Of a stretch of DNA of 64,000 bases, positions 26,387 through 62,642 are shown piece after piece. How positions within the stretch are numbered: position 1 is the stretch's first letter; every line of letters starts with the position of its first letter. The stretch covers positions 1-64,000 of the forward strand of contig JAJEIP010000068.1 of NCBI GenBank assembly GCA_022827885.1, given 5' to 3'. Under the pieces are notes generated by a model. The model was not told the DNA's origin. It did not search any database and worked only from the letters and a program-made list of their open reading frames with translations. The DNA is from Candidatus Poribacteria bacterium (GTDB lineage Bacteria; Poribacteria; WGA-4E; WGA-3G). A program made the translations under genes and the position numbers.

Positions 26387-26508
26387 AGGACTTACGCAAT
26401 TTTGACTGTGGTTTCCCGTTCTGTGAGATGAGATTTTTCGGAAAACACAGCGTTCTGGTGGCACAAACTAACAGTTTATGCTACAAAAGAGCAGTATGCG
26501 TAAGTCCT
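26387..26508. mobile_element. 122-bp MITE-like element with 12-base terminal inverted repeats
   Basis: Ends are AGGACTTACGCA and TGCGTAAGTCCT, a perfect inverted pair. ATTAGA flanks both sides (26380-26385 and 26509-26514), a likely 6-base target duplication with one odd base on the left. No coding capacity. The right half shares 25 identical bases (26460-26484) with 61656-61680. Confidence 0.7.
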
Positions 26509-27719: not shown

Positions 27720-28982
27720 TTATAGAAAAGTGTTGTCCGCAAAGAGAACATTTGGATTGGTTTTGCCACGGACGAACACCGCTTTCCCATCGGTTTGAAA
27801 GCGGTTGTTATAAAACCGGATGTTGCGAATCCCTTCGCTCACACAATCAACCGCGGCAGGGTTTCCATCGGTGGATTGGGTTGTGAAGATTGTGTTGGCG
27901 TAAAAAGTTGTGTCGGTCAGACCGCCGCTGGCACCCGTAGACCAGAGGTGGATGCTTCCGTAACGATTCCTCCTACCATCGTTTACACTCACGTTGTGGC
28001 GAAGGACGTTCCCATGAAATGCACGGGCACCGCTGAATTGCGCCAACAGATACCCGGGTCCATCGTTATCGTGGGAGTAGTTGTGCTGGACAGTCGAATT
28101 CCGCACGCCACCATCCAAATCGAACCCACCCCCATCTTTACTACTGCCAGTTCGGTTGTGATGCGATTCATTGAACTGAATGACAATACGGTTCGCGTCC
28201 CATACCCAGATTCCAACGGGACCCCCGCCTTCGTAATCGTTTAAGCCGCCATTTTCGTAAGCACGGCACCGCTCAATCACCGCCCTATCCACCTGCGCGA
28301 GGACGATACCGTTCCCTGAGTGACTCTCCTTGCCAGGGACGCCTGCGTTTCTGTAAACGCTGCAGTTACCGAGATAAAAGTTCGCATGTGCATATCCGTC
28401 TCGCTCCGGATTCCAAGCACCGATACAACTGATACCTGCGTCCCCGTTGTCATGGCTGGTGGTGTATGTAATGCTGACATCACGGAAACCGCTCCAACTC
28501 CGATCTGGGGGTTCTGCCACGAAGTGGATTCCAGAATGCTTGAAACCGCTGACATCGACACGATGAATCCGAATATCTCCTAACTTAATGCCACCGGGTC
28601 GCGTATTCAGGAACAGGATACCGGAATGGACATTTTCAGACGCGCCAACCCCGATAAAGTTGAGTTCGCTTAGGTGAACGTCTCCCATATTCTTGGCTAC
28701 AAAACCGGCACCCTCTCCTGCGGCGATGGTGGCTCTACCGGATCCGTAGGAGCTTAGTGTTACGGCACACGGCGTGTTGCTACTGCTTTCTGTTACGGCA
28801 CACGGCGTGTGCCTACTACTTTGCAGACAGAGATTTCCGGGGAAGGTTTGGTTGGCATGAAACAGAACAGTATCGCCGGGCAACAACTGGGCAGTATTTA
28901 CCCGTTCAATACTTTGCCACGGACATGTTTCGGACGTGCCGAGGTTTGAATCGTCACCGAGCAAGCTTACGTAGTAATCCAT
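27720..28982 (-). CDS. Right-handed parallel beta-helix protein with an in-frame palindrome insertion
   Basis: 420 residues. It follows the pectate-lyase-like beta-helix pattern: DYYVSLLGDDSNLGTSETCPWQSI at the start is typical of proteins that act on or bind polysaccharides, followed by regular 20-25-residue coils rich in Asn, His and Gly (VQHNYSHDNDGPGYLL, FHGNVLRHNVSVND). No signal peptide is visible, and no sure catalytic residues. Residues 55-76 are an insertion of two 11-residue units, SSRHTPCAVTE and SSSNTPCAVTL, encoded by a repeat palindrome (28755-28820). Without it the chain reads LCLQ directly into SSYGSGRATI, as in relatives. Substrate unknown. Confidence 0.8.
   Translation of the reverse strand: MDYYVSLLGDDSNLGTSETCPWQSIERVNTAQLLPGDTVLFHANQTFPGNLCLQSSRHTPCAVTESSSNTPCAVTLSSYGSGRATIAAGEGAGFVAKNMGDVHLSELNFIGVGASENVHSGILFLNTRPGGIKLGDIRIHRVDVSGFKHSGIHFVAEPPDRSWSGFRDVSITYTTSHDNGDAGISCIGAWNPERDGYAHANFYLGNCSVYRNAGVPGKESHSGNGIVLAQVDRAVIERCRAYENGGLNDYEGGGPVGIWVWDANRIVIQFNESHHNRTGSSKDGGGFDLDGGVRNSTVQHNYSHDNDGPGYLLAQFSGARAFHGNVLRHNVSVNDGRRNRYGSIHLWSTGASGGLTDTTFYANTIFTTQSTDGNPAAVDCVSEGIRNIRFYNNRFQTDGKAVFVRGKTNPNVLFADNTFL
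28755..28820 (-). repeat. Two tandem 33-base palindrome units inside a coding sequence
   Basis: Cores at 28764-28780 (GGCACACGGCGTGTTGC) and 28797-28813 (GGCACACGGCGTGTGCC), spacing exactly 33 bases. The second core and the seven or so bases after it recur at 62055 in non-coding DNA. Confidence 0.85.
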
Positions 28983-28992
28983 CGCAAACCGC

Positions 28993-29643
28993 TTAAAATA
29001 TGTTCACACCGCCAAGCGGATGGCTCGGAATATAGCGGAGGTCGTTATATGCGTCGCGCTGGAGCATCGTTGGGACCTCCAACTTCGGAAGTTTCAGTTC
29101 AACGAATTTCAGACGTTGATCGGGGGTCAATTCTGCGGCGATTTCCTCGACAAGGTCTTTAATCTCGTCGAGATAAATCTCACGCTGCTTCAGGAACTTC
29201 CGTGCCTCGTCTCTGAATGCGTTTAACTCGCGCCGAGAACGCGCATTCATGAACCCGCTTTCGTAACGATCGTAGTATCGTTGCGTCATACCCGCCCGAA
29301 ATATCTGATAATCCACCTCTAACTGTTTCTTCTCAAAATCGTAATCGTCAACGATATCACGGATAAGTTTCAGTTTCGGGTGAATTGTCTGCTGCTGTGA
29401 CGTTGTGAGTTGCAATGCGGCTGAGCTCTTGGGAACATCAATCAGTTTGAGTCCGCCGCACGCTTGTAAAAAGCAACAGAGGCATAAAATGAAGAAGGGG
29501 ATGGAAGACTGGAAGACCGGAAGACTGGAAGACTGGGAGGTTCCCCCCTCTTCCAACTTTCCGACCTTCCAGTAAATGCCTTCCAATCTCAGGGGCAAAC
29601 GAAGAAATCCCGTGTCAGTCCTACAAGTCATACAAGTCACCAT
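28993..29643 (-). CDS. Lipoprotein of unknown function, start uncertain
   Basis: Up to 216 residues. A lipobox follows a hydrophobic run: FFILCLCCFLQAC, Cys at about residue 62. This is far too deep for a normal lipoprotein signal, so the true start is probably a non-ATG codon nearer the hydrophobic run, or the 5' end was rebuilt by repeat DNA. Four 8-base units (GGAAGACT type, plus strand 29503-29534) lie in that region. The mature part is helical and charged (KKQLEVDYQIFRAGMTQRYYDR, KFLKQREIYLDEIKDLVEE), possibly coiled coil. The nominal start overlaps the M32 gene end by 23 bases. Confidence 0.5.
   Translation of the reverse strand: MVTCMTCRTDTGFLRLPLRLEGIYWKVGKLEEGGTSQSSSLPVFQSSIPFFILCLCCFLQACGGLKLIDVPKSSAALQLTTSQQQTIHPKLKLIRDIVDDYDFEKKQLEVDYQIFRAGMTQRYYDRYESGFMNARSRRELNAFRDEARKFLKQREIYLDEIKDLVEEIAAELTPDQRLKFVELKLPKLEVPTMLQRDAYNDLRYIPSHPLGGVNIF
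29503..29534. repeat. Four tandem 8-base repeats (GGAAGACY)
   Basis: Units GGAAGACT, GGAAGACC, GGAAGACT, GGAAGACT. Unit length is not a multiple of three, and the tract lies in the 5' part of the lipoprotein frame. Confidence 0.8.
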
Positions 29644-60050: not shown

Positions 60051-61607
60051 CTACCTCAATTCCCGAAGACGTTCCAAGAAAAATCCGTTGGGCCATTCAT
60101 CAATAAAATCGCCCTCCTCATCAAGACGTAGACGTTCTGCTTTTGCTCCCTCAGGACCACGACTGACATAGATAACTGAGACATCTTCTGGCTTGATCTC
60201 TCCTTTATAGACTAAACGTTGCAGGCGTAAAATCAGATGTTCACTGTGGGTCTCAACAATGAATTGGTTTGGGCGGTCTTTTTTAATCGCTGCAGCTAAG
60301 AGATCCCCCAGATCTGCTTGCAACTTCGGATGCACGTGAATTTCAGGCTGTTCTATAGCAATAATTTGTTCTTCTGCCACCAAACTCTGAACAATGAACG
60401 GGAGAAGTTGACTGATACCGAAACCGACATCTGGCAGTGCGACACTTACGGGTTCTTTTCGACGCGTATCTATGAGCCTCACCTGAAAAAAATCGTCTGA
60501 ATGAGCACCAATCGATTTCACCTCTAACTCATAATCAATCCCAAGTCGTTTTAGCCATTTATTTGTCTCTTCTACCAATTCAGGGTTACGGAAGAGGATA
60601 TCCGGAAGCGAGTCTCCACGGTATCCTACATTATCAGGGTCAGTACCACTAAAGATATATGATCTCTCCGGAGGTTTCCGAAAAGGTCTTATTGGAAAAA
60701 GCGCTTCCAAAGTTTGTTCCAAAGTAGCACCCGTTGCCGTAGTGAGATCAGCAATATGAAATGTTGATAGTGGTTCGTAGTGGATCCGCTCACGAAGTGT
60801 GGGCACATATGAGGTTCCAACTGCGATGAACCCCTGAACGCCTAGAACTGTGTTCGTCTCTTCCTTGTGCCTCTTGGAAATGTAAGTTTTCAAATCAAAA
60901 TCTGATGAAAGAAACACAATCTCATCATTTAAATCCTTGAGTAGAAATTCCCAATACTTCTTATTATTTTTTTGAAGTTCCTGGTTAGGGTGTTGAAAAT
61001 TCTTTAATTTTTCCTTCAGTTCCTCAAGTATTTGCTCCTTATACTCTTTACACGCCTCAAATTCAGGTTTCCAATACTTTATGTTTTTCGTTAACCATGT
61101 ACACTCCGCTGCAGCTAATTTTAAAGAAGAAACACCATGAGAATAAAACATTCCGCTCCTATCTAAAGTTTTACCCGATAGCCGAAATTTAGCAATACAC
61201 TCAGAGGATTTCCCTTCATAAACCCCAATTTGATCCAAAATGACTTCTTCCTTAAGGGAAGGTCTCTTGAAATTAAATTCAATAGCTATCTTGTTTTCTT
61301 TGTACGGTAATTGAGGCATATCACTATCTCTTATAGTTTCAACACGAATTGAGAGCGTCCGCTTCAGGTCATGGTCAAAAAGCATTTCCTGAAAACTGCC
61401 GAGATCAACAATCCCATTTTCGGCACGAGGGAGCAGCAAGGCTCCAGTCTCTCGGTTCTCCCGCGTCTGCTTGAGGAGATAGAGTGCTTGCAGGGTTGTG
61501 CTCTTTCCCGCGCTGTTTTCACCGAAAATGAGTGTTATCGGTGCAAATGGGATACGGGCACGTTTTCCAAACGCTTTGAAATTCTCTAACTCCAGTGCAT
61601 GAAGCAT
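60051..61607 (-). CDS. AAA ATPase with DUF3696 C-terminus (OLD/SMC-like)
   Basis: 518 residues. Walker A GENSAGKSTTL (about 29-39) inside ALELENFKAFG, a long insert (90-300), then the signature-like DVGFGISQLLPF, Walker B IIAIEQPEIHVHP and the D/H loop FIVETHSEHLILRL. The end EEGDFIDEWPNGFFLERL is the DUF3696 motif (part DEWPNGFF). These ABC-like ATPases occur in PARIS, Gabija-like and other phage-defence pairs, and in toxin systems. There is no TOPRIM domain. Own promoter at 61723-61751 and AGGAG before the ATG. Together with the downstream protein it is a plausible defence module; that is inference. Confidence 0.85.
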   Translation of the reverse strand: MLHALELENFKAFGKRARIPFAPITLIFGENSAGKSTTLQALYLLKQTRENRETGALLLPRAENGIVDLGSFQEMLFDHDLKRTLSIRVETIRDSDMPQLPYKENKIAIEFNFKRPSLKEEVILDQIGVYEGKSSECIAKFRLSGKTLDRSGMFYSHGVSSLKLAAAECTWLTKNIKYWKPEFEACKEYKEQILEELKEKLKNFQHPNQELQKNNKKYWEFLLKDLNDEIVFLSSDFDLKTYISKRHKEETNTVLGVQGFIAVGTSYVPTLRERIHYEPLSTFHIADLTTATGATLEQTLEALFPIRPFRKPPERSYIFSGTDPDNVGYRGDSLPDILFRNPELVEETNKWLKRLGIDYELEVKSIGAHSDDFFQVRLIDTRRKEPVSVALPDVGFGISQLLPFIVQSLVAEEQIIAIEQPEIHVHPKLQADLGDLLAAAIKKDRPNQFIVETHSEHLILRLQRLVYKGEIKPEDVSVIYVSRGPEGAKAERLRLDEEGDFIDEWPNGFFLERLRELR

Positions 61608-61655: not shown

Positions 61656-61680
61656 GGCACAAACTAACAGTTTATGCTAC
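61656..61680. repeat. 25-base copy of MITE right part
   Basis: Identical to 26460-26484 inside the MITE. Following bases end GTCCTAAT, near the MITE end GTCCTATT, so this may be a decayed MITE half. Confidence 0.65.
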
Positions 61681-61751: not shown

Positions 61752-61815
61752 AAGGAATCATCGTAGCAAGACGTGTAAATATTTTGTCATAACAACCGGG
61801 AACCTTAAACACATA

Positions 61816-61976
61816 GCACTCCGCTGGAGTGCAAGAGAAGGGCACCTCTTTTCTATAGACATATTGCTCCGCTGGAGCAAGAGACAGACACTTGAGAAGT
61901 CAGGGCATCCTCACGCCAGAGGCGTGATATATCTATAGAAATATCGCTGGTACCTTTCCGCACTCCAGCGGAGTGC
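61816..61976. repeat. Cluster of four 17-base palindromes
   Basis: GCACTCCGCTGGAGTGC at 61816-61832, TTGCTCCGCTGGAGCAA at 61864-61880, TCACGCCAGAGGCGTGA at 61911-61927 and GCACTCCAGCGGAGTGC at 61960-61976. Spacing 47-49 bases. CTATAGA words lie between them. Confidence 0.85.
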
Positions 61977-62054
61977 CATATAAATAAACTGCTCCTCTTT
62001 GAAAAAATTAATACGCCTCCAAAAGCTTTACACACCCATCGTGGCATACCTGGC

Positions 62055-62071
62055 GGCACACGGCGTGTGCC
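62055..62071. repeat. Palindrome GGCACACGGCGTGTGCC
   Basis: Followed by TACTACT. Core and tail identical to the second unit inside the beta-helix gene (28797-28813). Confidence 0.85.
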
Positions 62072-62176
62072 TACTACTGTAAGTCCCTACACGAGATTGT
62101 AGGGCATTTGACGGAAGGTAGTGTCTCTGTGTATCTTATTCGTCTGCACAGGTAGGATTCTTACGGGTATTCATAC

Positions 62177-62578
62177 TTAAGAGTTTCCAAGAGACTCGTT
62201 GAAACATTTGAAGAGTTTGTCTTCCGTTTCAGGAGAGATATCCGGGAGAGACTCGTCTTTTGAAAAAACGGACCCAAACGCTTCTTCTGCTAATAAACTG
62301 TCGACCGTTTCACAGATAGTCTTTTCAGTAAGTTTTTCAACGATCATCATGTCAGAGGTCCAAAAGTACATCCCGGCAGCACATTCTCCAGTCTTTTTGT
62401 ACCGCTGCATCAAAGTTTCAATGTTCCGAAGCGTAAAAAAGACTGCGGAGAAATTCTCTCCATTCGGAAAGGTAACTTGAACATCAACATTATCATTGTC
62501 CGGATTCAGGGGACCGATTCCACCATAAATCGTCAATTTGTAGTCTTTACATTGAACAACTGTGTAAGGCTTGTCCAT
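62177..62578 (-). CDS. Unknown small acidic protein
   Basis: 133 residues from ATG 62578, preceded by GGAGG. No known domain seen. N-terminal half is beta-rich (YTVVQCKDYKLTIYGGIGP, VDVQVTFPNGENFSAVFF), C-terminal half helical and acidic (VEKLTEKTICETVDSLLAEE). The phrase RNIETLMQRYKKTGECAAGMYFW suggests a conserved compact domain, and small proteins of this make-up are often immunity or accessory proteins; this is a guess. Lies between the palindrome cluster and the aminotransferase gene on the same strand. Confidence 0.6.
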   Translation of the reverse strand: MDKPYTVVQCKDYKLTIYGGIGPLNPDNDNVDVQVTFPNGENFSAVFFTLRNIETLMQRYKKTGECAAGMYFWTSDMMIVEKLTEKTICETVDSLLAEEAFGSVFSKDESLPDISPETEDKLFKCFNESLGNS

Positions 62579-62642
62579 CTTTATTGACCTCCAAAACACT
62601 GCAAAATTTCAATAATTCAGTTAATGTAGGTCATCGACGACT

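What the first reader, a model, noticed from the sequence alone, without database searches (positions are those of the whole stretch)
28755..28820. Repeat palindrome inserted twice in frame in a protein-coding gene
Two tandem 33-base units add 22 residues (SSRHTPCAVTE, SSSNTPCAVTL) to a beta-helix protein between LCLQ and SSYGSG. The second unit's core and tail match a non-coding palindrome at 62055. Known parallel: Rickettsia palindromic elements that insert into genes and are translated. The frame is kept because the unit is 33 bases.
Basis: partly seen in the sequence, partly recalled or inferred. Interest (0 to 1): 0.78.

Follow-up and report, generated by a model that had tools for sequence, protein, structure and literature searches.

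The report
Mobile DNA hairpin translated inside protein
A tiny mobile DNA hairpin that normally sits between genes in sponge-associated Poribacteria has got into a protein-coding gene without breaking it, and relatives show the same loop empty, freshly filled and worn down, so one can watch 'junk' DNA become protein.

Summary
Window 28755-28820, inside a 420-aa right-handed beta-helix gene (27720-28982, minus strand), holds two tandem 33-base units. The unit at 28788-28820 is an exact copy of an interspersed palindrome, AGTA-GTAG-GCACACGCCGTGTGC-CGTAACA.

The palindrome has the features of a GTAG-tagged REP (repetitive extragenic palindrome). It has 22 copies in this Poribacteria genome, occurs in all 38 genomes of the genus, and covaries in its stem. 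In nine relatives a related repeat lies next to the gene of a REP-associated tyrosine transposase (RAYT). Of the 22 copies here, 20 lie between genes; the other two are this insert.

The frame is intact and the gene is under purifying selection (dN/dS about 0.13). AlphaFold places the insert in a low-confidence loop. Orthologs in other genera and distant phyla lack it. Compared with empty sites it replaces a 14-residue loop by 23 residues (net +9, not +22).

Several relatives carry one unit, and two genus clades carry loops that look like decayed units. A second gene also carries in-frame 33-base REP-like units.

Translated intragenic REPs are known elsewhere, so this is a new member of a known kind with an unusually good ortholog series. 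The Rickettsia comparison holds as analogy, not membership.

The parts
27720..28982 (-). Host gene: 420-aa right-handed beta-helix protein (Pfam PF13229); nearest solved folds GH136 lacto-N-biosidases
   Evidence: PF13229 E=1.2e-9; AF2 pLDDT 91.6; Foldseek best 7v6i/6kqs/5gqc. dN/dS about 0.13 against orthologs.
28788..28820 (-). REP unit 1: AGTAGTAGGCACACGCCGTGTGCCGTAACAGAA, encodes SSRHTPCAVTE; exact family consensus, intact hairpin
   Evidence: 0 mismatches; ssDNA hairpin -7.4 kcal/mol, z -3.15; 33/33 identical to G036 although the rest of the gene is 84% identical.
28755..28787 (-). REP unit 2: AGCAGTAGCAACACGCCGTGTGCCGTAACACTA, encodes SSSNTPCAVTL; decayed left arm
   Evidence: 2 mismatches; hairpin no better than shuffles.
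62048..62080 (-). Extragenic copy of the same REP, between an ATPase-like ORF (60051-61607, -) and a 140-aa ORF (62177-62599, -)
   Evidence: 2 mismatches to the 25-base consensus.

Best explanation
The insert is a tandem pair of GTAG-tagged REP elements of a Poribacteria REP family whose cognate mobiliser is most likely a RAYT (HUH/Y1 tyrosine transposase). As single-stranded DNA the element folds into a hairpin next to a GTAG head, the kind of substrate RAYTs cleave. Copies normally settle between genes. One copy landed in a variable loop of a beta-helix protein, replacing the native 14-residue loop, and a second unit was added with a 33-base period. This phase is stop-free and the length is a multiple of three, so the loop is simply translated as SSRHTPCAVTE SSSNTPCAVTL and tolerated. 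Afterwards copies drift as ordinary coding sequence. Shown: family identity, genomic distribution, transposase linkage in relatives, empty and occupied orthologs, intact frame, purifying selection, predicted loop position. Inferred: mobilisation by the RAYT, order of events, neutrality of the peptide, actual translation.
For: Copies: 22 in this genome with 0 in the reversed control; all 38 genus genomes; 63 of 85 phylum genomes, only within the order. Structure: stem pairs change together, C-G to T-A in 11 copies against 1 single change, A-T to G-C in 12; ssDNA hairpin. Transposase: a 213-aa RAYT (NCBIfam NF047646 E=5.8e-16, below its cut-off; PF01797 over its cut-off). All nine orthologs have this repeat type upstream and eight of nine on both sides; other RAYTs of the phylum are flanked by other GTAG palindromes. 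Genus genomes with the RAYT have more copies (median 25 against 10, p=0.01). Gene: orthologs with two, one, decayed and no units; no insert in other genera or distant homologs; dN/dS 0.12-0.16; insert residues 60-70 have pLDDT below 50 between strands 51-54 and 74-79. Of the 22 copies only these two are inside a convincing gene, though about 90% of the window is ORF-covered. A second gene has in-frame 33-base REP-like units in an interdomain linker.
Against: The cognate RAYT was not found in this genome (best match 32% identity), although the assembly is 96.7% complete in 148 contigs. REP-rich genomes outside the genus lack a detected cognate RAYT. The REPs flanking this RAYT lie in the same orientation as the gene, not inverted as first described for RAYTs. 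Insertion came with loss of the native loop, so it is not a clean transposition footprint. No expression data exist.
Confidence: 0.86

Rival explanations
1. An original part of the protein: an ordinary coding tandem repeat whose palindromic DNA is accidental.
For: The frame is open and the repeat is tandem and a multiple of three. Two genus clades have loops of similar character at this place.
Against: The same 25 bases occur at 20 places outside genes here and next to RAYT genes. Orthologs of other genera and phyla lack it.
Confidence: 0.03
2. One ancient insertion in the ancestor of the genus that decayed in most lineages; the perfect unit in this genome and G036 was refreshed later by gene conversion or recombination, not by a new insertion. 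(A version of the best explanation that differs in timing, so the two confidences overlap.)
For: Loops of two genus clades keep 13-28 of 30 bases of the REP in register (codon-shuffle p from below 0.0005 to 0.045), against 6-11 in outgroups and empty-site species. Unit 1 is 33/33 identical between G000 and G036, within the longest identical run of that gene pair.
Against: Seven genus species have a loop like the outgroup's (G003, G015, G021, G028, G030, G032, G034), some nested next to occupied ones. This needs several reversions, allele exchange, or independent insertions. The in-register test ignores shared ancestry.
Confidence: 0.4
3. An RNA or DNA regulatory hairpin kept for its own function (for example binding a nucleoid protein or shaping mRNA), with the peptide incidental.
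For: Covarying stem; unit 1 hairpin z -3.15; unit 1 identical at synonymous sites in G036.
Against: Unit 2 and most relatives' units have lost the stem while the frame is kept. No Rfam match.
Confidence: 0.07
4. Assembly or binning artefact.
For: The genome is a fragmented assembly in 148 contigs.
Against: The same two-unit state stands at the orthologous site in G036, a single-contig chromosome (OX639992), and in G014.
Confidence: 0.01

Closest known systems
Intragenic GTAG REPs (Di Nocera et al. 2013, PMC3733652; O. terrae, Thauera, Thioalkalivibrio and others)
   Same: GTAG-tagged short palindrome, mostly extragenic, a few copies inside ORFs as single units or dimers encoding 20-30 residues; association of GTAG repeats with tyrosine transposase genes; loops and linkers proposed as neutral sites.
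   Different: Poribacteria is not named in that paper. Here units are head-to-tail with a 33-base period, the hosts are a beta-helix protein and a cytochrome/TPR protein rather than DNA-repair genes, and orthologs show empty, filled and decayed states.
REPtrons / RAYT (TnpA-REP) (PMC2817692, PMC8266576)
   Same: GTAG head plus hairpin, Y1/HUH transposase of the IS200/IS605 kind, cognate REP next to the gene.
   Different: All flanking REPs found are in the same orientation as the gene, where the original description says inverted; the cognate gene was not found in the host genome of this insert.
Rickettsia palindromic elements (RPE)
   Same: Palindromic repeat kept in frame and translated inside unrelated genes.
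   Different: RPEs are about 150 bases in the review read here (PMC10969869), and RPE-4/6 are assigned to the CGTC type (PMC3733652); this is a 30-33-base GTAG type in another phylum.
REPINs
   Same: REP-based, non-autonomous, RAYT-dependent short repeats.
   Different: REPINs are paired inverted REPs (own knowledge); here units are in direct tandem.

Membership tests
GTAG-tagged REP | GTAG tetranucleotide directly 5' of the palindrome | tested here: met
   AGTA-GTAG-GCACACGCCGTGTGC in the consensus and in unit 1; the last G can also pair.
GTAG-tagged REP | Self-complementary stem of 5-13 bp kept by compensatory changes | tested here: met
   6-8 bp stem; two stem pairs covary. Copies may be related, so counts are not independent events.
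GTAG-tagged REP | Interspersed in many copies, mainly between genes | tested here: met
   22 copies, 20 extragenic in G000; 42 of 50 sampled copies clearly intergenic, most of the other 8 in doubtful ORFs.
GTAG-tagged REP | Cognate RAYT gene with the REP next to it, in the family's host lineage | tested here: met
   Nine genus genomes, REP upstream in 9 of 9 and on both sides in 8 of 9.
GTAG-tagged REP | Cognate RAYT in the same genome (not obligatory: lost in some species, PMC3733652) | tested here: not met
   Best match in G000 is 32% identical and flanked by another REP family; assembly incomplete.
REPtron as first described (PMC2817692) | The two REPs flanking the RAYT are inverted | tested here: not met
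   All detected flanking REPs are in the gene's orientation, none opposite. A weak inverted palindrome without GTAG lies downstream in L154.
GTAG-tagged REP | Cleavage and mobilisation by the RAYT | not testable with these tools
   Needs biochemistry.
Rickettsia palindromic element | About 150-base element, or CGTC-tagged short type (RPE-4/6) | tested here: not met
   30-33 bases, GTAG-tagged, in Poribacteria.
REPIN | Two REPs in inverted orientation as the mobile unit | tested here: not met
   The two units here are in direct tandem.

The most novel reading that the evidence does not exclude
In Poribacteria a REP/RAYT system repeatedly seeds the same protein loops and linkers with a ready-made 33-base, stop-free coding module, and these modules then evolve into ordinary protein sequence, making REPs a continuing source of new loops across a genus.
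Probability: 0.3. Interest if true: 0.65.

Novelty: new member of a known kind. Interest (0 to 1): 0.46.

Why it matters
REPs are by name extragenic, and translated copies are usually seen as isolated oddities. Here some 30 same-genus orthologs show one loop empty, with one intact unit, with two units, and apparently decayed, next to an identified candidate mobiliser in relatives. That makes the fate of mobile DNA inside a functional protein traceable step by step, and suggests how new protein loops can arise from selfish DNA.

Tried and rejected
A regulatory RNA was considered: no Rfam match. A cognate RAYT in the window's own genome was sought by Pfam profile and by protein: of the four PF01797 genes found, two had no nearby GTAG palindrome (C59, C68) and two lay beside the GGTGCGGTTT palindrome (C137, C144); a fifth RAYT (C115) carries the GTAGCACAAACT family. 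Twenty weaker RAYT-like loci of genomes outside the genus showed no such REP. Several apparently intragenic copies in the 50-copy sample were rejected as antisense, short or N-terminal ORFs. Tandem spacings from loci L235-L245 were left out of the statistics because those loci had been picked by a peptide match to the 33-base tandem. A solved-structure match for the RAYT was sought and not found. A query for the E. coli K-12 record gave nothing used here.

Full report
WHAT IS THERE. The window lies in a Candidatus Poribacteria genome: the close relatives of the gene with named records are Poribacteria assemblies, and the window is contig C9 of a 5.1-Mb assembly. The host gene, 27720-28982 on the minus strand, encodes a 420-aa right-handed beta-helix protein (PF13229); an AlphaFold model has mean pLDDT 91.6, and the nearest solved folds are GH136 lacto-N-biosidases at 16-20% identity. 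Between LCLQ and SSYGSG it carries two 33-base units, read as SSRHTPCAVTE and SSSNTPCAVTL. In gene order the first unit is 28788-28820 and the second 28755-28787.

A REPEAT FAMILY, NOT CHANCE. The 17-base palindrome gives 7 window matches within 3 mismatches against 0.13 in shuffles. The consensus AGTAGTAGGCACACGCCGTGTGCCGTAACA becomes plain when genome copies are lined up. Its 25-base core has 22 places in the genome and none for the reversed control. It occurs in all 38 genomes of the genus, 1 to 110 copies, and in 63 of 85 genomes of the phylum, all of the same order.

A GTAG REP. The element has GTAG immediately 5' of a GC-rich palindrome. Variants keep the stem: among 104 copies C-G becomes T-A in 11 with only 1 one-sided change, and A-T becomes G-C in 12, with 13 one-sided changes at that pair. 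Unit 1 folds as ssDNA to -7.4 kcal/mol (z -3.15), while unit 2 has lost its stem. GTAG-tagged palindromes are REPs associated with RAYTs (PMC3733652, PMC2817692), whose cleavage in vitro depends on GTAG and hairpin (PMC8266576).

THE LIKELY MOBILISER. In nine genomes of the genus a 213-aa Y1 transposase (HVH motif; PF01797 over its cut-off; NCBIfam REP-associated tyrosine transposase E=5.8e-16 but under its cut-off) sits with AGTAGGCA[CT][AG]C palindromes of this family upstream in 9 of 9 and on both sides in 8 of 9, often beginning a few bases after the stop codon. Other RAYTs of the phylum sit among other GTAG palindromes. Genomes with this RAYT hold more copies (median 25 against 10, one-sided p=0.01; relatedness not corrected). 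The window's own genome lacks it (best 32%), though its close relatives G036, G007 and G014 have it. The flanking REPs all point the same way as the gene, unlike the inverted pairs first described for RAYTs.

WHY IT IS UNUSUAL WHERE IT IS. ORFs of at least 100 aa cover about 90% of the window, yet 20 of 22 copies in this genome lie between genes and the other two are this insert. In a sample of 50 copies, one per genome, 42 were clearly intergenic; apart from the window itself only one of the other eight (L059) was a convincing in-gene copy.

ORTHOLOG SERIES. Orthologs from 30 genus genomes and 15 outside it were aligned. Two units: G000, G036, G014. One unit: G007 and G025. Recognisably decayed: G029, G001. 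Empty, with an outgroup-like loop: G003, G015, G030, G021, G028, G032, G034 and all other genera. Distant homologs (Conexibacter, Pedobacter, Paenibacillus, Lactobacillus, an Alteromonadaceae) have a short loop without the residues. The empty loop has 14 residues where G000 has 23: net +9, so native loop sequence was replaced. On a tree without the loop, G000, G036, G014 and G007 share a 100/99-supported clade of seven with three empty species, while G025, G029 and G001 lie in another clade. In both remaining genus clades, loops that no longer look like REP still match it in register at 13-22 of 30 bases (p 0.045 or less by codon shuffling), against 6-11 in empty and outgroup loops. Either one old insertion spread and decayed with allele exchange, or the site was hit repeatedly; the data do not decide.

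THE PROTEIN TOLERATES IT. Outside the loop dN/dS is 0.12-0.16. The only stretch of the model with pLDDT below 50 is residues 60-70, inside the insert, between strands 51-54 and 74-79. Unit 1 is 33/33 identical between G000 and G036, inside a 50-base run that is the longest identical stretch of a gene 84% identical elsewhere. This suggests recent conversion, exchange, or constraint on the DNA.

A SECOND CASE. A protein with cytochrome c554-like and TPR domains (open frames around 900 aa), present in most or all genus genomes at about 90% identity, has a REP-like element in frame in the linker before the TPR domain. G022 has a single GTAGTAGGCACACGCCGTGTGCCGTCA read as VVGTRRVPST. G037 has four direct 33-base units of a variant (GGCACAGTCCCTGTGCC), and G036 has two. 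G006 and G020 carry another palindrome in the same linker; G007, G014 and G031 carry further GGTAGGAGGG-type insert sequence there. The tail reads GTCA instead of GTAA, which removes the stop in that frame. All seven intragenic tandem pairs in these two genes are spaced 33 bases; none of 16 pairs in loci not picked by peptide match is.

MECHANISM AND VERDICT. Best reading: a RAYT-mobilised GTAG REP pair that landed in a permissive loop in the one stop-free forward frame, is translated and tolerated, and drifts into ordinary protein sequence. Family identity, empty sites, selection and loop position are shown; mobilisation, order of events and translation are inferred. The kind is known: intragenic GTAG and CGTC REPs were catalogued in 2013, with loops and linkers proposed as neutral sites (PMC3733652), and RPEs in Rickettsia are the functional parallel (PMC10969869). 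What is new is the phylum, the direct 33-base tandem, the second gene and the ortholog series.

Noticed in passing
26461-26484 and 61657-61680 (-): Two copies of a second GTAG REP family (GTAGCATAAACTGTTAGTTTGTGC), with 62 copies in this genome; its copies flank a RAYT at G000:C115:5533-5931. A palindrome of this type (AAACTCACAGTTTACGCTAC) also lies just beside the first REP in L014.
   Followed up: partly
61811-61990: Several copies of another short palindrome-like repeat, CACTCCGCTGGAGTGC, between genes next to the extragenic REP.
   Followed up: no
L278-L313 (cytochrome/TPR gene; G022:C23:14768-16951): The linker of a conserved cytochrome c554-TPR protein is a hotspot: at least three different short palindromic elements occupy it in frame in different species.
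   Followed up: partly
L168-L176: REPs flanking this RAYT clade lie in the gene's own orientation on both sides, unlike the inverted arrangement first described for RAYTs; the G011 copy of the RAYT gene is split between frames.
   Followed up: partly
G066, G071, G037, G025: Genomes with about 50-110 copies; for G066 and G071 no cognate RAYT was detected, so another mobiliser or a lost one is likely.
   Followed up: partly
29499-29545: Short tandem repeat of GGAAGACTGGAAGACC type on the plus strand, near the 5' end of the neighbouring minus-strand ORF 28993-29643.
   Followed up: no
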